Shown here: positions 44,075 through 51,598 of the stretch, piece after piece
Layout: each line of letters begins with the position of its first letter
Numbering within the stretch: the first letter of the stretch is position 1
NCBI RefSeq assembly: GCF_000013365.1
Contig: NC_007778.1
Coordinates: 2,418,001-2,482,000 of the forward strand
Reading direction: 5' to 3'
DNA length: 64,000 nt
Source: Rhodopseudomonas palustris HaA2
GTDB lineage: Bacteria; Pseudomonadota; Alphaproteobacteria; Rhizobiales; Xanthobacteraceae
Notes under the pieces: generated by a model
Database searches by the model: none
What the model saw: only the letters and a program-made list of their open reading frames with translations
What the model was told of the DNA's origin: nothing
Position numbers and translations under genes: made by a program

Positions 44075-44598
44075 GTCGTTCTCCTGTGGCTCACTCCTGC
44101 ACACGAGCGCAGGTAAGCGGACGAGCGATATAGCAGGCGATTCCGCCGATGCAACCAAGCCGTGGGGGTTTTTGGGGCCCCGGCTGCGGCAAATGACGGG
44201 GCGAGGGGGCCTGGTTGAATGCAAAGGCATTGAACTGGGCGGCGAGGGGCAATGCGCCGCCTGCTGCCGTCCGCCGTCAAGCTCGCGACCTCGCCGCGCC
44301 GGCAGGCTGGCCAGGGCGCAGGCGATGGCCGTGTCAGTGGGCGACGAACAGGAACGAAGTCGCGCCGGACGGGTTGTTCGATAGGTCGTCTGCCGATCGA
44401 GCCGATTGGTGCCGTTCGGGCGCAGCACATTGAAGGCGCGTGACTGATTGGCATCTCCCGATGCGAATGCGCGCCAGACTCAGTTTCCGTTCGTTTCGCA
44501 GCGGGTCGACGACGACCCGCCGTTTCCACGCGCGGTGGGCGCCCGGTTCGGAGTCATGGCTGATCGGCCCAGCCCGGTCCGGAAAGAGACGATCAGCC
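44075..44598. other. Divergent intergenic region between thrS and the phytochrome gene
   Basis: About 520 bp without a convincing gene; short frames on both strands have no protein features. It should contain both divergent promoters. No T-box-like leader is recognised upstream of thrS. Confidence 0.45.
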
Positions 44599-47037
44599 AT
44601 GGCGAGTGAAATCGTGCAATCAGATCTGGACTATTCGATTTGCGACCGCGAGCCGATCCATATCCCCGGCGCGATCCAGCCGCACGGGGCCTTTCTCGCC
44701 GCGCGGGTCGACACTTCCGTGGTCACGCATGCCAGCGCCAATCTGGACGAGATGCTCGGCATTTCCGCCGGCGCCGCGTTGGGACAAACGCTTCGGCAGT
44801 CGATCGGAGCGCTGGCCAGCGGCACCATCCTGGACGCGATTTCCCGCGACCACAGCGCGTTGTATCAGTTGTCCGGCTGGTACGGCAAAGACCTGCATCT
44901 GACTGCGTACCGGGTCGGCCCGCAGGTCTGCATCGATGTCGAACCTGTTTCGCCGAGCGTTGCGCCGATCTCGCCGGTTCACCGGGTCCGCGCCGTGCTG
45001 GACGCGTTCAGGTCCGCCGAGGGGCAGCGCGAACTCTGTGCGCTCGCGGTGCGCAGCCTGAGAGAGATCACCGGATACGACCGGGTGATGGCCTACCGCT
45101 TCGACACCGACGGCCATGGCGAAGTGATCGCCGAGGCTCGCGGTTGCGAGATGGATCCGTATCTGGGGCTTCACTATCCCGCATCGGACATTCCGCCTCA
45201 GGCCAGGCAGCTCTATCTGCGCCAGCGCGTCGGCGCGATCGTCGATTCCCGCTATCGGCCGGTGCCGTTGCTCACGGACCGGACGCTCGATCACGGGACG
45301 CCGCTCGATCTGACCTGCAGCACCTTGCGCAGCGTCTCGCCCTATCATCTGGCCTACATGCAGAACATGCAGACCGCGGCGAGCTTGACGATCGGACTGG
45401 CGGAGGGGCCGGAGCTGTGGGGCATGTTGGTGTGTCACCATCGCACGCCGCGAAATCCGGGCCCGGAGCTGCGCGCGGCCGCCGACATTCTGGGGCAGTT
45501 CGTCTCCACATTGCTGGGGCCTCTGGGTGAGGCCGAGGCCGCCAGGAAGAGGGTCGAGCGCAACGCCACCATGATGCGGCTCGCCGAGCAGTTCGCGTCC
45601 GCGCCGACGATGCTCGAGGCGTTCGCCGCGACCGAATCCGAGTTGCTTGATCTGGTCGATGCCGCGGGCGCCATCATCAGTTTCGCCGGGGTGGTTCGCT
45701 GCATCGGACGGACGCCGCCGCCCGGCCAGGCCGAGCGGGCGCTCGCGCGGCTGCGTGATGAATCCGCCGGCGAATTGCTGGCGTGCGACGACCTCGGCTT
45801 GCGCCATCCCGAACTGTCCGCGTGTAAGCGGGGCGGCAGCGGCGCGCTGCTGCTGCCGCTGGTGGGCGCGGACGACGCGATGTTGTGGTTTCGCCCGGAA
45901 CAGTCGCGCACGACGCGCTGGGGCGGCAACCCGGCCGAACCCGCCTTGGCCGATGCGGCCACCGGGCTGATATCGCCCCGCGCGTCCTTCGCCGTCTGGA
46001 TCCAGACCGTGAGCGGTCATTCCGCCCCTTGGAAGGAAGGCGATATCGCGATCGCGCACGAATTCCGGAAACTCATTGAAGGCGAGACGGCCCGGCGAAC
46101 GAAGGCCGAACTCACACAGCTCCGTCTGGCTCGTGAACAGGATCAGATCGTCCAGGCGGCAAGGCTGAAAGTCGCACTCGAGAATCTGCGCGACGGCGTC
46201 GCGATGTTCGACGCCGACAGTCGGCTGGTGATGTGCAACAATTTGTACGCCAAACTTTATCGCTTGCCGGAAGCGCTGCAACAAGTCGGCACGCATATCC
46301 GGGACATCGTTCAGTCCTGCATCGCGAACGGCGTCGTTGCGGATGATATCGGAAGTCAGGAGGAATGGCTGAAGCTGTATGTTCTTCCGACCGATACCTC
46401 CAGCCGGATCCAGCAACTGTCCGATGGGCGGCTGATCAACCTGACCCGGCAGCCTCTGCCGGAAGGCGGCTGGGTCAGCACCCACGAGGACATCACCGAG
46501 CAGCAGCGCCGCGAGGCCGAAATTCTCTTTCTCGCGCACCACGACCTGCTGACCGGACTGGCCAATCGCGCGGCGTTTGATGAAACCGTCGAGACGGCGG
46601 TGGCGCGTCTGCAGCGGAACGGCGAGCCGTTCACCTTGTTCATGCTCGATCTCGACCGGTTCAAGCAGGTCAATGACACGTTCGGGCACCCGGCGGGAGA
46701 CCAGTTGCTGCGGGAAGCTGCGCAACGGCTCAGATCCTCCGTCCGAAAGACCGACATTCTCGCTCGCCTCGGCGGCGACGAATTCGCGATCGTTCAGTTC
46801 GGCGCAGGGGACCGCTTCAAGGCCGCGAAGGGGCTGGCCGAGCGAATCGTCAGGTTGATCTCGCAACCCTTCGACCTCGGCGGGGCGCAGGTTTCGGTCG
46901 GGATCAGCATCGGGATTGCAATAGCGCCGCACGCCGCAACGGATGCGGCGGCGTTGCTCAAGATGGCCGATGTTGCGCTCTATGCGGTGAAGTCCGAGGG
47001 CCGGAATGGATTTCGATTCTTCGAGCCGGAGGCGTGA
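44599..47037 (+). CDS. Bacteriophytochrome-GGDEF protein (light-sensing diguanylate cyclase)
   Basis: An 812-aa red/far-red photoreceptor. The biliverdin-binding Cys15 is in YSICDREPIHIPGAIQPHG. PAS, GAF (DPYLGLHYPASDIPPQAR, RSVSPYHLAYMQNM) and PHY regions follow to about 510. A PAS segment (ALENLRDGVAMFDADS) precedes a GGDEF domain with intact GGDEF at about 725 and an RKTD inhibitory I-site. It thus should couple light to c-di-GMP synthesis with product feedback. No histidine-kinase domain, and no heme oxygenase gene is nearby, so biliverdin must come from elsewhere. ATG 44599. Confidence 0.95.
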   Translation: MASEIVQSDLDYSICDREPIHIPGAIQPHGAFLAARVDTSVVTHASANLDEMLGISAGAALGQTLRQSIGALASGTILDAISRDHSALYQLSGWYGKDLHLTAYRVGPQVCIDVEPVSPSVAPISPVHRVRAVLDAFRSAEGQRELCALAVRSLREITGYDRVMAYRFDTDGHGEVIAEARGCEMDPYLGLHYPASDIPPQARQLYLRQRVGAIVDSRYRPVPLLTDRTLDHGTPLDLTCSTLRSVSPYHLAYMQNMQTAASLTIGLAEGPELWGMLVCHHRTPRNPGPELRAAADILGQFVSTLLGPLGEAEAARKRVERNATMMRLAEQFASAPTMLEAFAATESELLDLVDAAGAIISFAGVVRCIGRTPPPGQAERALARLRDESAGELLACDDLGLRHPELSACKRGGSGALLLPLVGADDAMLWFRPEQSRTTRWGGNPAEPALADAATGLISPRASFAVWIQTVSGHSAPWKEGDIAIAHEFRKLIEGETARRTKAELTQLRLAREQDQIVQAARLKVALENLRDGVAMFDADSRLVMCNNLYAKLYRLPEALQQVGTHIRDIVQSCIANGVVADDIGSQEEWLKLYVLPTDTSSRIQQLSDGRLINLTRQPLPEGGWVSTHEDITEQQRREAEILFLAHHDLLTGLANRAAFDETVETAVARLQRNGEPFTLFMLDLDRFKQVNDTFGHPAGDQLLREAAQRLRSSVRKTDILARLGGDEFAIVQFGAGDRFKAAKGLAERIVRLISQPFDLGGAQVSVGISIGIAIAPHAATDAAALLKMADVALYAVKSEGRNGFRFFEPEA

Positions 47038-47162: not shown

Positions 47163-48311
47163 GTGTCCCGCTCTTTCGCCCCCTCCGCCCTGATGCTCGG
47201 CAATTTCGTCACCGGAACCGCGGTTCTGGCGCCGGCCGGCATGCTCGGCGAATTGTCCCAGGGCCTCGGCGTCAGCATCCGCGACGCCGGCCTTCTGATC
47301 ACCTTCGGCGCGGTGGTGCTGTGCATCGGCTCGCCGCTGTCGGCGTGGCTGACCTCTAGGATCGACCGCCGGCTGCTGCTGACGACGACGCTCTTGGTGC
47401 TGGCGCTCGGCAATCTCGCCTCGGCCTTGGCGCCGAACTACGCCGTGTTGCTGGCCCTGCGGATCGCGATGCTCGCGGTCGGGGCGCTGTATACGCCACA
47501 GGCGGCCGGCGCGGTGGCGCTGCTGGTGGCGCCGGAGAAGCGCGGCGGCACCATGGCCTATGTGTTTCTCGGCTGGTCGCTGGCGGTGGCGCTGGGGGTG
47601 CCGATGGTCGCCTTCGTCGCCGGCCATTTCGGCTGGCGCGAGGCCTATGGCCTGCTCGGCGCGATCGGCCTGATGTCGTTCGTGCTGCTGTGGGCGCGGC
47701 TGCCGGGCGGGCTGCGCGCGACGCCGGTCGATCTGTCGACCTGGGCCGCGGTCGGGCGCAACCGCCGGGTTCTCAAGCTGCTCGGCGTGTCGTCGCTGCA
47801 GACCTCCGGGCAGTTCGTGGTGTTCACCTATTTCGGGCCGCTGCTGACCGGGCTCACCGGCGCCGGCCCCGCCGAGATCGGGCTGGTGTTCGCGCTCTAC
47901 GGCGTGTTCGGCTTCGTCGGCAGCGTGATCGCCAGCCGGATCGTCGACGGCTGGGGCTCCTACAACACTTCGGCGCTGTTCACCGCCTTCATGCTCGCCG
48001 GCATCGCCGGCTGGACGTTCGGCGCCGGCCATTTCGCCGTGATGGCGGCGTCGGTGGCGATCTGGGGGCTGGGCTTCGCGGCGGCGAATTCGATGCAGCA
48101 GGTGCGGCTGCTCACCGCCGATCCGGCGCTGGCGGGCGTCACCGTGTCGCTCAACACCTCGGTGCTGTATGTCGGCCAGGCGATCGGCTCGGCGATCGGC
48201 GGCGCGCTGTTCGCGGCCGGCCTGATGCACGTCAACGGCTACGTCTCGACCGCGGTGATGACCTGCGCGCTGCTCGCGGTGCTGTTCGCGACGCGGGAGA
48301 CCAATCGGTAA
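47163..48311 (+). CDS. MFS transporter (arabinose-efflux / drug-efflux-like)
   Basis: A 382-aa protein with about 12 hydrophobic helices. The MFS signature loop 2-3 is seen as AWLTSRIDRRLLL. The N-terminal helix pattern GTAVLAPAGMLGELSQGL fits the DHA1/AraJ-like efflux group. Start is GTG at 47163. Substrate unknown. It is the last gene before the AT-rich FtsZ-like island. Confidence 0.92.
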   Translation: MSRSFAPSALMLGNFVTGTAVLAPAGMLGELSQGLGVSIRDAGLLITFGAVVLCIGSPLSAWLTSRIDRRLLLTTTLLVLALGNLASALAPNYAVLLALRIAMLAVGALYTPQAAGAVALLVAPEKRGGTMAYVFLGWSLAVALGVPMVAFVAGHFGWREAYGLLGAIGLMSFVLLWARLPGGLRATPVDLSTWAAVGRNRRVLKLLGVSSLQTSGQFVVFTYFGPLLTGLTGAGPAEIGLVFALYGVFGFVGSVIASRIVDGWGSYNTSALFTAFMLAGIAGWTFGAGHFAVMAASVAIWGLGFAAANSMQQVRLLTADPALAGVTVSLNTSVLYVGQAIGSAIGGALFAAGLMHVNGYVSTAVMTCALLAVLFATRETNR

Positions 48312-48434
48312 TCAATAACCGTTTCGGCCCGGCATACCGTTCCAAAAATTCCTAGTTTACAGCTTTGGGTTGCTTTACTCTCTGGCTTAGTAAGCTGCGA
48401 TACGCGCGGCCGGTTCCCAAGTCGTGATGGAATC

Positions 48435-49268
48435 ATGTGGGCATTTTCGGTGGGATCGCCTCGGTTTGCTGATGAGAGACTAGCGTCGATCTCAGTCGAC
48501 TCGTCAGCAAACTTGCTGAGTGAAAACGGATTTGGAATTTTCGTCGCTTTGTGGTGCGGGCGAATCCGCGAACGAATCGAAGTGAATGGTCAGGTCCAAG
48601 GGGTTACATTTGGCTTTTTGTCTGGTGAACTGATCGTGGAACCAAGTTGCGGTCGAATTAGCAACGAGGGCCGCTTAGAAGTAGAAGCGGGCCGATTCAA
48701 GATCACTCAGAACGAATCGGACCAGACTAAAAAGGACGCGGCTGCTGGTGCTGATGTAGGTTTCGACATAGGTAAGATCTTTGGTTTGTCCAGAGTAGCA
48801 GTTGCTGCTGGAGCTCATTTAAGCAGAACGATTTCCAAGACAGAACAGAAAGATGGTGAGTACTATCAGGTATACTGGCGGGTAGCAGACGCTGGGCACA
48901 ACTTCTGGCGGGTCCACGGTATTGGACTGAATGCCGACGGCGTTCTTGAAAATCGCATAATTGGGGGAACCCCATTGTGTTTCATCGTTTCTGACAGTCA
49001 AGACCCCATCGAGATTTCGGTCAGTTATCGTTGTGATCTCAGAGATCTTTGGTTTCAGCGAGACGAATTCGCCTATTTCACCACTGACGCTCGTTTCGAG
49101 CGAGATCAGGAAGAAAGGAATCGGGCTGCTGTAGCAGGCCGCGTAGTTGCGATAGCGCTGAATCGAAGGAGCGGTCAGTCATCGTTGAATTCCATTGGTC
49201 AGATCGTGACTCTCGCTCGCCAGAAGGTGAGGGCGGAGAAGAATACTCTGGGTGCCTCTAATGGTTGA
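48435..49268 (+). CDS. Unknown protein coupled to the pentapeptide-FtsZ gene
   Basis: A 277-aa protein I do not recognise. It has no signal peptide. Residues 45-100 are beta-rich with Gly turns; 100-130 contain a Gly/Ala-rich amphipathic stretch ([20 protein letters not shown]); the C-terminal third is mixed with a basic tail. Codon use is visibly AT-richer than flanking genes (TTT, AAT, AGA and AAA codons are common), suggesting acquisition. Its stop overlaps the FtsZ-like gene start by 8 bp, so the two proteins are probably made together. ATG 48435 has only a weak ribosome-binding site. Confidence 0.75.
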
Positions 49269-50802
49269 GGAATATTCGCAATTTCTATGCGACGATGAGC
49301 GCGATCGAGTCGCCGCTGTGTTTCGATGTCGCTCGGCGTCGTTTTCGGATCTGGTAAAATCCGCAAGACTAAGTCCATCGGAAGATTTTCGTGGGGCGAA
49401 TCTTGCTGGTGTAGATTTTCGCGGCTCTGATCTCCGAGGATTTGACTTCGCAGGTGCCAACCTGGCGGAAACAAGTTGGTTAGGCGCTGTTTGGGACTCA
49501 ACTACCAATTTTGCTGGTGCCGAATTTTTGGGTGCTCGAGGTTTTCGGGCGGAGAGACTGGAGGATCGTTCCGGCGCTTTCTTAGGTCGAGTGGATCGTA
49601 ATCTGAGAGTGGTCGTGATTGGCGTCGGTGGTGCAGGTGGCAATACGATCAACTATATGATCAATTCTGGTCTTAGTGGGCCTGAATTCATTGCCGCGAA
49701 CACAGATGCGGAGGCGCTAAAGAGTTCGAAGGCGTCGATGCGGATTCAAATGGGTGTCCGGAGGACGGAAGGTCTCGGTGCCGGCTCGCAGCCTGATATT
49801 GGAGCAGATGCAGCGCGAGAGGCCATTGATGAGATCCGAGATGCTCTTAGAGATACGAGTGTGTTATTCGTAGTGGCTGGAATGGGCGGCGGTACTGGCA
49901 CCGGCGCAGCCCCGATAATCGCCGAAGCAGCGCGCGAGATGGGCATCCTCACCATCGGCGTCATCACCAAGCCTTTCCATTTTGAGGGTGCCCGCCGTAT
50001 GCGGACTGCGGAGTCCGGCATCACCGAGTTGCGCAAGGTCGTTGACACGCTTCTGATCATCCCGAACCAGAACCTGTTTCGGGTCGCGAACGAGAGGGTT
50101 ACGTTTGTCGACGCGTTCGCGATGGCCGATCAGGTGCTTTGTTCGGGCGTTGCCTGCATCACTGACCTGATGGTGAAGGAAGGCCTGATCAATCTCGATT
50201 TTGCCGACGTCCGAGCCGTGATGAGCGAAATGGGCAATGCAATGATGGGCACCGGCGAAGGATCCGGCGAGAAGCGCGCATTGATCGCCGCTGAAGCTGC
50301 GATCACAAGTCCTTTGATCGATCGCTCTTCGGTGAAGGGGGCCCGCGGCCTCCTGATTTCGATCACGGGCGGAAACGACCTGACTCTTTTCGAAGTCGAC
50401 GAGGCCGCCACCCGTATCCGGGAGGAAGTTGACCAGGATGCCAACATAATCGTCGGCGCCACCGTCCAAGTAGCCCTCGAAGACAACATCCGCGTGGCGG
50501 TTGTCGCCACCGGCATCGAGAGTCCACGCCCGCCACGTAATTCGGAAGACTCGGCCGTGTCTTTCCGCGGAACCGGACGTCTCCCTCTGAAGACAGTTCG
50601 GCGACCCATGCACGGGTCTGTTCCTAGTTCCGAACTCCCCAGTTCTGTGGAAGGGATGGAGGTCGGCACATTTGGGCCGCCTCAGTTTGGAAACACCTCT
50701 GGTACGGAGTTGCTGCAATCGGCCTCAGAAGTCACGCCGGGGTCCCGAGAGACACCGGAACCAAGGAACGAGGCGAACTCTGTTAGCCCTATAGACCGTT
50801 GA
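49261..50802 (+). CDS. Pentapeptide-repeat domain fused to an FtsZ-type tubulin GTPase
   Basis: A 513-aa fusion. Residues 41-95 are a short pentapeptide-repeat block ([30 protein letters not shown]...). From about 113 an FtsZ domain follows: [18 protein letters not shown], the tubulin signature GGGTGTGA, and the T7 synergy loop NLDFADVR, all intact. It should bind and hydrolyse GTP and polymerise. The C-terminal linker ends NSVSPIDR without the conserved FtsZ tail peptide that docks FtsA/ZipA, so it is not the main division FtsZ. It overlaps the unknown upstream gene by 8 bp. The first third is AT-rich; from about 49,880 on it resembles host DNA. Confidence 0.93.
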
Positions 50803-51187
50803 TTAAACTGCGCACCTAGATTGGGTTCGCGATTGATCAGATGTTTGATGACCAACTTGCCATTAACCCTGCGGGGGGACGTCGACTATCTGTGCGAGAG
50901 TTGAATCGGTAAGGGCGTCTGAAGACAGGTTGATGCGACGTCACTGGTGCTCGCCGAAAAGCGGTGGATGACCATGCGATTGGTGCGGCAACGCGTGGCT
51001 ATCAACTCTGGATCTTCGTCGATCCGCCGCGTTCGATGATCTGTGAGAACGCAAGTTTGATTTCCACAGCAAGCGTTTCAGCGAGCCGAGCCTCACCAGA
51101 TCCTCGTTGCGCCTGTGGCCCATGCCACTGCGGTCGCCGCCGTGCTATGCGGTCTGTCGAGACTCGTCGATGGGGCTGGGGGCCAGG
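50803..51187. other. Intergenic right edge of the AT-richer segment
   Basis: About 385 bp with no convincing gene. Composition is intermediate and returns to host-like GC by about 51,100. No integrase, tRNA or flanking direct repeat is seen. Confidence 0.45.
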
Positions 51188-51598
51188 ATGTTGCGCCTGC
51201 TGATCGGATGCACTGTCGCGGCGACGCTGGCCGGGTGCGCCGCGCTGCCGGCGCCGGCGTGTCTGCCGCCGTCGCGGCCGATGCTGAGTGCGGAACTCGC
51301 CTTCGGCCGCAACATCGGCGATCGGCCGGGCGTCAGCGACGCCGACTTCAGGCGGTTCGCCGCCGAGGAGATCACGCCGCGATTTCCGGATGGCTTCACC
51401 GTGGTCGACGGCGCCGGGCAATGGCGCGATACCGAGCGCGGCCGCGTCGTCCGGGAAAAGGCCAAGCTGGTGACGATCGTGTTCGCCGAGGATGCGGGCA
51501 AGCGCGCGGCGCTGGGCGAGATCGCCGAACTCTTCAAGCGGCGCTTCAGCCAGCAGGCGGTGATGGTGTCGGTGCGGCCGAGCTGCGTCAGCTTCTGA
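51188..51598 (+). CDS. DUF3574 family lipoprotein
   Basis: A 136-aa lipoprotein. The signal LLIGCTVAATLAGC ends in lipobox LAGC. The DUF3574 core is recognisable: AELAFGRNIGDRPGVSDADF, EEITPRFPDG and AKLVTIVF. Function unknown. ATG 51188 chosen; ATG 51170 would lengthen the N-terminus by six residues. Its 3' end overlaps the convergent small gene by 11 bp. Confidence 0.85.
   Translation: MLRLLIGCTVAATLAGCAALPAPACLPPSRPMLSAELAFGRNIGDRPGVSDADFRRFAAEEITPRFPDGFTVVDGAGQWRDTERGRVVREKAKLVTIVFAEDAGKRAALGEIAELFKRRFSQQAVMVSVRPSCVSF

What the first reader, a model, noticed from the sequence alone, without database searches (positions are those of the whole stretch)
49261..50802. Pentapeptide-repeat domain fused to a complete FtsZ-type GTPase
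The protein joins about ten pentapeptide units (residues 41-95) to an FtsZ domain whose nucleotide motif GGGTGTGA and T7 loop NLDFADVR are intact, but it lacks the conserved FtsZ C-terminal docking peptide. Seen: both modules in one frame. Known: pentapeptide-repeat proteins fold as rod-like right-handed helices, some mimicking DNA; FtsZ polymerises. Inferred: a GTP-driven filament carrying a DNA-mimic or surface module, perhaps a defence, partitioning or division-control device. I know of no characterised protein with this architecture.
Basis: partly seen in the sequence, partly recalled or inferred. Interest (0 to 1): 0.92.

Follow-up and report, generated by a model that had tools for sequence, protein, structure and literature searches.

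The report
Two-gene conflict cassette carrying FtsZ
A small mobile two-gene cassette, probably a bacterial immune system, has a docking module that elsewhere carries many different domains; here it carries a copy of the cell-division protein FtsZ, part of it close to the host's own FtsZ, perhaps as bait for phage proteins that attack cell division.

Summary
The fusion is real: one intact 513-aa frame (49261-50802) with a helix-capped pentapeptide module (residues ~5-97), a complete FtsZ GTPase (114-425) and a tail lacking the FtsZ docking peptide. The module recurs in other alphaproteobacteria ahead of unrelated C-termini (LRR, TPR, HEAT-like, FGE, STAND-type ATPase, unnamed domains). The upstream ORF (48435-49268), overlapping the fusion by 8 nt, is its partner: 16 of 21 module loci have such an upstream gene. 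The window's own partner is a distant member of that family by sequence (E 4e-4 with one profile, 0.57 with a larger one), so position carries much of the argument. The pair is a low-GC insert beside an MFS gene; the site is empty in two congeners, and in a third a TIR-domain gene is inserted on the other side of the same MFS gene. The FtsZ part is a mosaic: residues 208-401 are 85% identical in DNA to the host ftsZ, the rest 64%. I read it as a modular conflict system in which FtsZ is a swapped-in bait for phage FtsZ inhibitors, or else a division poison. Architecture is well supported, mechanism is inferred, no function was tested, and the FtsZ version was seen in this genome only.

The parts
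48435..49268 (+). Upstream partner gene ('UP', 277 aa), constant component of the two-gene cassette; no Pfam, NCBIfam or PADLOC family
   Evidence: Membership of the upstream family: blastp 4.7e-5 to L155 among 14 proteins; profile built without it E 3.7e-4 (5 rows) but only 0.57 with 7 rows, still above all 2644 decoys, best 3.1; adding it improves the scores of L151, L147, L149 and L231
49261..50802 (+). Fusion gene, 513 aa: adaptor module + FtsZ GTPase + tail
49261..49268 (+). 8-nt overlap of the two genes (ATGGTTGA), as expected for translational coupling
   Evidence: overlaps of 1 to 23 nt, counted from the longest frame, in 12 of 21 module genes and 0 of 33 control pentapeptide genes
49273..49551 (+). 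N-terminal adaptor module (residues 5-97): helix '[18 protein letters not shown]' followed by pentapeptide coils
49381..49536 (+). Pentapeptide units, residues 41-92
49600..49881 (+). Diverged N-terminal part of the FtsZ GTPase domain (nt identity to host ftsZ outside the tract 0.64)
49882..50463 (+). Host-like tract of the FtsZ domain (residues 208-401, nt identity 0.85), including the synergy (T7) loop
   Evidence: log-likelihood gain 26.1; maximum of 60 shuffles 8.3; six ordinary FtsZs 4.3-11.5
50191..50214 (+). T7 / synergy loop NLDFADVR, identical to host
50536..50799 (+). 88-residue tail without the FtsZ docking peptide
48312..51020 (.). Low-GC insert between the MFS gene (47163-48311) and the small gene at 51107; alignments of nine congeners end at 48298-48307 and resume at 51020-51218
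48303..48311 (+). 9-nt AATCGGTAA at the left end (end of the MFS gene)
   Evidence: may be chance
50904..50912 (+). Second AATCGGTAA, right of the fusion gene
   Evidence: may be chance

Best explanation
The locus is a mobile two-gene conflict (probably anti-phage) cassette. SHOWN by sequence: a downstream protein whose helix-plus-pentapeptide N-terminal module is coupled to exchangeable C-terminal domains, here FtsZ, and an overlapping upstream gene (UP) in the same place as in other module loci. INFERRED: UP is the constant part and the module docks the downstream protein onto it. The occupants of the C-terminal slot that can be named (LRR, TPR, HEAT-like, FGE, STAND-type ATPase) are mostly binding or sensing folds, so I read the slot as the recognition part and UP as the signalling or executing part. 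In this cassette FtsZ is the bait: it lacks the membrane-docking peptide, so it should not serve in division, but it keeps a synergy-loop face close to the host's, the face on which known phage and host FtsZ inhibitors act. Binding of such a phage protein to the bait would release or activate UP.
For: Two-gene linkage: 16 of 21 module loci have a same-strand upstream ORF ending at the module gene: 15, plus L152, missed there through an over-long frame and seen. UP-profile hits in 397 genomes of the order: 5 genomes, all 5 directly upstream of a module gene; G552 had given no row to the profile, G621 neither, though it was found through the row of L191. An annotated Agrobacterium plasmid shows the same pair with an 8-nt overlap. 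Exchangeable slot. Mobile site; TIR_2 4.1e-12 in the congener's insert. FtsZ: GTP and T7 motifs intact; w 0.07 in residues 211-400 and 0.15 in 114-210 against the host gene; host-like tract; tail without docking peptide. Precedent: CapRel-Ebc is activated by T7 Gp0.4 bound to the synergy-loop face of host FtsZ (PMC13423816; abstract, passages and sections 8, 10, 11 read); the segments protected there, E. coli 199-206, 262-270 and 292-303, match host FtsZ at 8/8, 8/9 and 7/12 positions in the fusion.
Against: No function was tested. UP has no known fold and its model failed (pLDDT 33), so its role is a guess. The window's UP is only a distant member of the upstream family: E 0.57 with the 7-row profile. 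The partners of L190 and L084 are not recognised, and FGE loci have a partner family not shown to be related, so 'constant' holds for part of the loci only. 5 of 21 module loci (L146, L150, L188, L160, L169) show no adjoining upstream gene; in L146 and L150 a gene of the FGE-type partner family lies 420-460 nt away. The TIR-domain insert lies on the other side of the MFS gene, not at the same point. The third of the inhibitor-contact segments is changed (7/12). The FtsZ version is seen once. The host-like tract may reflect recombination without functional meaning.
Confidence: 0.4

Rival explanations
1. Same two-gene conflict system, but FtsZ is the effector. On activation it joins host FtsZ filaments through its host-like synergy-loop face and, with an altered nucleotide face and no docking peptide, caps or untethers them, so that division stops (dormancy or abortive infection).
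For: The two parts of the domain differ strongly: 58 of 96 positions equal host in the N-terminal part, 179 of 205 in the rest. Position 151 (E. coli Q47) is E; the position is conserved in at least 98% of 81 FtsZs, and Q47K is used as a monomeric FtsZ in PMC13423816 (section 10). The docking peptide is missing. Kaur 2020 lists rare FtsZ/tubulin effectors in other conflict systems (PMC7159879, passages).
Against: The other nameable C-termini are not evident killers. No toxicity data.
Confidence: 0.27
2. A non-immune regulator or scaffold: the fusion forms its own GTP-driven filament, or modulates division or partition in this strain, and UP is its loader.
For: GTPase and T7 motifs intact and under purifying selection. 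FtsZ paralogues occur on many plasmids (117 records with a match).
Against: The same module goes with LRR, TPR, FGE and STAND-type proteins; the site is a variable insert, empty in two of nine congeners.
Confidence: 0.17
3. Decaying or neutral cargo: a captured ftsZ fragment behind the module, on its way to loss.
For: Seen in one genome only; 29 of 229 near-invariant FtsZ positions are changed (median of the other FtsZs 0, largest 26).
Against: Intact frame of 513 aa, w well below 1 in both parts, motifs intact.
Confidence: 0.1
4. Sequencing or assembly join of two ordinary genes.
For: None found.
Against: Single-contig genome, no stop or shift, module known as N-terminus elsewhere, gene overlap as in other module loci.
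Confidence: 0.01

Closest known systems
EACC1 two-gene system and effector-associated domains (EADs), Kaur et al. 2020, PMC7159879
   Same: A constant 5' gene, a 3' gene with a highly variable domain slot, small non-enzymatic adaptor domains, superstructure-forming, FGS and STAND-type partners, rare FtsZ/tubulin effectors (passages and section 30)
   Different: EACC1 is built round one conserved TM helix, with a caspase frequent in its partner; the window's UP has no TM-like stretch (highest 19-residue hydropathy 1.16) and no caspase was matched in the module proteins scanned. EADs are paired homotypically; here the module is absent from the 17 upstream sequences tested (no hit better than E 0.19)
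CapRel-Ebc sensing of T7 Gp0.4 with host FtsZ, PMC13423816
   Same: FtsZ takes part in activating phage defence through its synergy-loop face
   Different: There the host's own FtsZ is used and the defence protein is a fused toxin-antitoxin; here an FtsZ copy is built into the cassette. Relation of the proteins not tested directly; the window pair has no PADLOC match
Chromosomal FtsZ (TIGR00065)
   Same: GTPase and C-terminal domains complete, up to 77.9% identity to Rhodopseudomonas FtsZ over the domain
   Different: Adaptor in front, mosaic sequence, no docking peptide, second copy beside the normal ftsZ
Pentapeptide-repeat DNA mimics (MfpA, Qnr; recalled)
   Same: Weak profile match to Qnr models
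   Different: Only about two coils, near-neutral charge; scores far below the Qnr cut-offs

Membership tests
FtsZ (domain level) | NCBIfam equivalog cut-off, GTP-binding motif, T7 catalytic loop | tested here: met
FtsZ as division protein | C-terminal docking peptide | tested here: not met
FtsZ as division protein | Polymerises with GTP and supports a Z-ring | not testable with these tools
   needs bench work
Upstream (UP) family of this report | Window ORF 48435-49268 is homologous to the partners of other module genes | tested here: inconclusive
   blastp 4.7e-5 to L155; profile E 3.7e-4 with 5 rows, 0.57 with 7 rows, above all 2644 decoys; same position and overlap
EAD (Kaur 2020) | Small, non-enzymatic, fused to varied effector or signalling domains | tested here: met
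[quoted passage not shown]
   module profile finds none in 17 upstream sequences (best E 0.19); one copy in the genome
EACC1 system (Kaur 2020) | Single TM helix in the 5' component | tested here: not met
   (hydropathy only)
EACC1 system (Kaur 2020) | Caspase domain frequent in the 3' component | tested here: not met
   no caspase match in Pfam scans of the window fusion and of the relatives scanned
Known anti-phage systems (PADLOC) | Match to a PADLOC model | tested here: not met
   10 proteins scanned; only weak HEAT and mads_8 matches to relatives (L156, L190), none to the window pair
Pentapeptide DNA mimic | Long, acidic right-handed helix | tested here: not met
   (sequence only; the structure model failed)
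Anti-phage defence | Protects against a phage | not testable with these tools
   none

The most novel reading that the evidence does not exclude
A bacterial integrated decoy: an immune sensor that carries a built-in copy of a host protein which phages attack (FtsZ), its target face kept like the host's by recombination with a host-lineage ftsZ, coupled through a new pentapeptide adaptor to a new partner protein. It would parallel the integrated decoys of plant immune receptors (recalled), within a hitherto unnamed family of two-gene cassettes with exchangeable sensors.
Probability: 0.31. Interest if true: 0.93.

Novelty: new variant of a known kind. Interest (0 to 1): 0.72.

Why it matters
If right, it adds a family of small conflict cassettes whose partner protein has no Pfam, NCBIfam or PADLOC entry, and shows a core cell-division protein taken up as an exchangeable immune part. 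It makes a concrete question testable: do bacteria display copies of phage targets as bait? The 2026 finding that host FtsZ bound by a phage inhibitor triggers immunity (PMC13423816) makes this less far-fetched.

Tried and rejected
DNA-mimic reading: rejected on coil number and charge. Frameshift join: rejected. EAD membership in the strict sense: rejected, no second copy. A prophage or phage origin: UP, two relatives of UP and the module found no relative in viral contigs, by exact-pattern scans that see close relatives only; in the 20 of 28 phage-collection rows listed for the fusion the match covers the FtsZ part only. Plasmid relatives: none for the window's own UP or for L158's partner, one for L156's, Agrobacterium. 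Structure: the fusion model (pLDDT 47, 30-row alignment) and the UP model (pLDDT 33, single sequence) are too poor to use, so no fold search was run. Solved structures: nothing for the UP profile; for the fusion, FtsZ and FtsZ-like chains plus one weak pentapeptide match. The origin of the diverged FtsZ part: not resolved, one clade with Rhodopseudomonas not rejected (AU p 0.40). The careful tree puts the host-like part with Rhodopseudomonas at 80/0 support, not firm, although FastTree gave 0.92.

The decoys held three frames that rank with the family and that I take, from their scores, to be family loci; one search repeats the test with 2644 clean decoys and a larger profile, and there the window's UP is weaker (0.57) while L147 and L149, unrecognised before, now score 1.8e-3 and 1.2e-3. 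The TIR-domain insert was at first taken for the same site; it is on the other side of the same gene.

Not in print, as far as these searches go: pentapeptide with FtsZ, pentapeptide adaptor with FGE, antiphage or STAND terms, FtsZ with anti-phage abortive infection. Only open PMC papers are held, and I read search listings, abstracts, passages or single sections, no whole text.

Full report
OBSERVATION. The frame 49261-50802 is one intact ORF of 513 aa. Pfam and NCBIfam agree on a complete FtsZ (residues 114-425) behind a weak pentapeptide match. The repeat stretch has six canonical units in register, two with Trp and two after a shift. GGGTGTGA and NLDFADVR are intact. There is no docking peptide. 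The genome carries one further FtsZ, the normal one, 74% identical over 342 aligned residues.

THE MODULE IS A FAMILY. Searching residues 1-119 in 397 genomes of the order gave matches in 83, most of them plain pentapeptide proteins; the eight best besides the window, however, include part of the helix before the repeats. In these the module opens proteins with quite different remainders. An 11-row alignment has the pattern F..L......LDP..DFR.ADL.G.DF.G.DLRG.DFTGADL. With it I found more members in 296 genomes of the family and 289 of the class; plain pentapeptide proteins again make up most hits, so I give no count of genomes with the module. Pfam identifies FGE-sulfatase (L146 1.3e-57, L152 1.4e-56), LRR (L147, L188), TPR (L149; L231 just above the cut-off), and in L190 AAA_16 (just above its cut-off), an nSTAND5 match (below it) and TPR. 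L148, L155 and L156 share a helical part that looks HEAT-like by eye (a weak PADLOC HEAT match for L156; no Pfam match for that part of L148 and L155). L154, L157 and L158 share an unnamed domain with FSGFPP; others are unnamed. The own genome has one copy only.

THE PARTNER GENE. In 11 of the 13 neighbourhoods first fetched an ORF of 226-376 aa ends on or at the start of the module gene; L146 and L150 are the exceptions. Many of these upstream proteins are related (L155-L156 3e-19, L157-L158 1e-105, L148-L156 1e-9, window-L155 5e-5). A profile of five of them, without the window's, finds the window ORF at 3.7e-4. A profile of seven with clean decoys finds L151 at 9.5e-7, L149 at 1.2e-3 and L147 at 1.8e-3, but the window ORF only at 0.57, with the best of 2644 decoys at 3.1; once the window's protein is added the scores of L151, L147, L149 and L231 all improve (2.6e-10, 9.3e-5, 1.2e-4, 0.011). 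L191 and L231 form a subfamily (34% identity) that joins the rest in a profile-profile comparison (probability 93%, E 3e-7, a single comparison). The partners of L190 and L084 are not recognised. FGE loci have a second partner family (L146, L150, L153, and L152 at 7.8e-14), not shown to be related to the first. So the window's UP is probably a distant member; its place and overlap carry much of the argument.

HOW REGULAR IS THE PAIR. Of 21 module loci in one script, 15 have a same-strand ORF of at least 180 aa ending from 200 nt inside to 60 nt before the start of the module gene; L152 makes 16 once its over-long frame is allowed for. Five lack one: L146, L150, L188, L160, L169. In the control, 43 loci of plain pentapeptide hits were given, 33 had a hit and enough upstream DNA, and 10 of the 33 also have such an ORF, mostly with gaps of 3-38 nt. 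Overlaps of 1 to 23 nt occur in 12 of 21 module loci and 0 of 33 controls (Fisher p 9e-7). One module locus (L154, 122 nt) and one control (L144, 176 nt) have larger overlaps, probably from over-long frames. The range was chosen after seeing the data, the loci are not a random sample, and related cassettes count several times.

FURTHER CHECKS. An 8-row partner profile was run over 397 genomes of the order: 5 genomes matched, each directly upstream of a module gene. G558, G762 and the window gave rows to the profile; G552 did not; G621 did not, but was found through the row of L191, which I had put in by eye (without it L231 scores 0.18). G621's neighbour is a 772-aa module protein, overlapping by 4 nt. 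Against this, of the nine order genomes whose module loci came, only three (G552, G558, G762) matched the partner profile; four are FGE-type (G044, G458, G673, G690) and two have the distant partners of L147 and L149. A relative of L156's partner on the Agrobacterium plasmid NZ_CP115845 overlaps the next gene, annotated as a pentapeptide protein, by 8 nt; profiles recognise both (1.1e-10 and 4.1e-15). The window's own partner, used as a single sequence, found no relative in 60 related genomes, in 384 others of the class, in plasmids or in viral contigs.

THE SITE. GC drops from about 0.70 to 0.50 across 48.35-49.7 kb; GC3 is 0.49 in the partner and 0.40 in the module against 0.94 in the MFS gene. 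Nine of the 15 congeners searched were read at this place. In G012 the MFS gene is followed after about 70 nt by the small gene that follows the insert here, so the site is empty; in G006 it is empty too, with the small gene also missing. In G002 a low-GC 280-aa gene lies at this point, followed by a 304-nt repeat of the MFS 3' end. Five (G003, G005, G009, G013, G015) hold about 1.75 kb of other DNA, in some with an O-methyltransferase-like or TetR-like gene by eye. In G001 a low-GC 987-aa gene with TIR_2 (4.1e-12) and a sub-threshold AAA_16 match (1.1e-4) is inserted on the 5' side of the same MFS gene, next to a partial copy of its start; that is the neighbourhood, not the same point. A 9-nt repeat flanks the insert here; it could be chance.

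THE MOSAIC. Against the host ftsZ, residues 114-210 are 61% identical and 211-400 are 90.5%; among 80 other FtsZs compared with the host gene the largest such drop is about 10 points, here it is 30. Synonymous differences differ too (pS 0.68 and 0.47, permutation p 0.004). The best two-boundary fit puts the host-like tract at residues 208-401 (49882-50463), 0.85 against 0.64 nt identity, likelihood gain 26.1 against at most 8.3 in 60 shuffles; six ordinary FtsZs give 4.3-11.5, four of them above the shuffles, so the shuffles understate natural unevenness. FastTree places this part within Rhodopseudomonas (0.92), IQ-TREE likewise but weakly (80/0). The other part sits on a long branch and cannot be placed (AU p 0.40). 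w against the host gene is 0.07 in residues 211-400 and 0.15 in 114-210, the latter with near-saturated dS. I conclude that the domain has been kept under selection, and that part of it was probably exchanged with an ftsZ of the host lineage, though not lately (dS 0.74). 29 of 229 near-invariant positions are changed; the other FtsZs have a median of 0 and a maximum of 26.

HOW IT MAY WORK. The nameable contents of the slot are mostly binding folds, so I take the slot as the recognition part. FtsZ would then be bait. Phage FtsZ inhibitors are described as common among diverse phages, and T7 Gp0.4 acts on the synergy-loop face and, bound to host FtsZ, activates CapRel-Ebc (PMC13423816; abstract, passages and sections 8, 10 and 11). 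The fusion keeps most of that face like the host's: 8/8, 8/9 and 7/12 in the three protected segments; the last is a mark against a perfect bait. The N-terminal face has changed, including the position of E. coli Q47 (E here). This leads to the rival, a capping or poison subunit. I cannot separate the two from sequence. That the cassette is a conflict system rests on architecture, slot contents and mobility, not on an assay.

COMPARISON. The logic (constant gene plus exchangeable domain through a small adaptor) is that of the EAD and EACC1 systems of Kaur et al. 2020, who also mention rare FtsZ/tubulin effectors (passages and section 30). Defining features were tested and not met: a second copy of the adaptor on the partner, a TM helix in the 5' component, and a caspase in the 3' component. 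PADLOC has no model for the window pair. I therefore file it as a new variant of a known kind, not as a member.

LIMITS. The FtsZ version was seen once. Gene calls in relatives come from a simple script. Both structure models failed.

Noticed in passing
L263 1786-4749 (congener G001): Low-GC 987-aa protein with a TIR domain and a sub-threshold AAA match, inserted on the 5' side of the same MFS gene next to a partial copy of that gene's start: the neighbourhood may be an insertion hotspot.
   Followed up: partly
L260 (congener G002): Low-GC 280-aa gene without Pfam match and a 304-nt, 97% identical repeat of the MFS 3' end, at the point where the window has its cassette.
   Followed up: partly
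L146, L150, L152, L153: A second upstream partner family goes with the FGE-type module proteins; its N-terminal part looks helix-turn-helix-like by eye, with no Pfam match for L153.
   Followed up: partly
L271: FtsZ paralogues lie on plasmids of Bradyrhizobium, Rhizobium, Aminobacter and others (117 plasmid records with a match, 61-74% identity in the 30 rows listed, matches starting at residue 128 or later); their role is unclear to me.
   Followed up: no
L073: Bradyrhizobium lablabi SZCCT0009 has a more diverged FtsZ locus (76% and 83% to the window's host FtsZ in the two parts) beside an ordinary one (L052).
   Followed up: no
L154, L157, L158: Unnamed C-terminal domain with an invariant FSGFPP motif in three module proteins; no Pfam family for it in the two that were scanned (L154, L157).
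   Followed up: partly
window 44440-47037: Large ORF that reads by eye as a bacteriophytochrome with a GGDEF domain; not tested.
   Followed up: no
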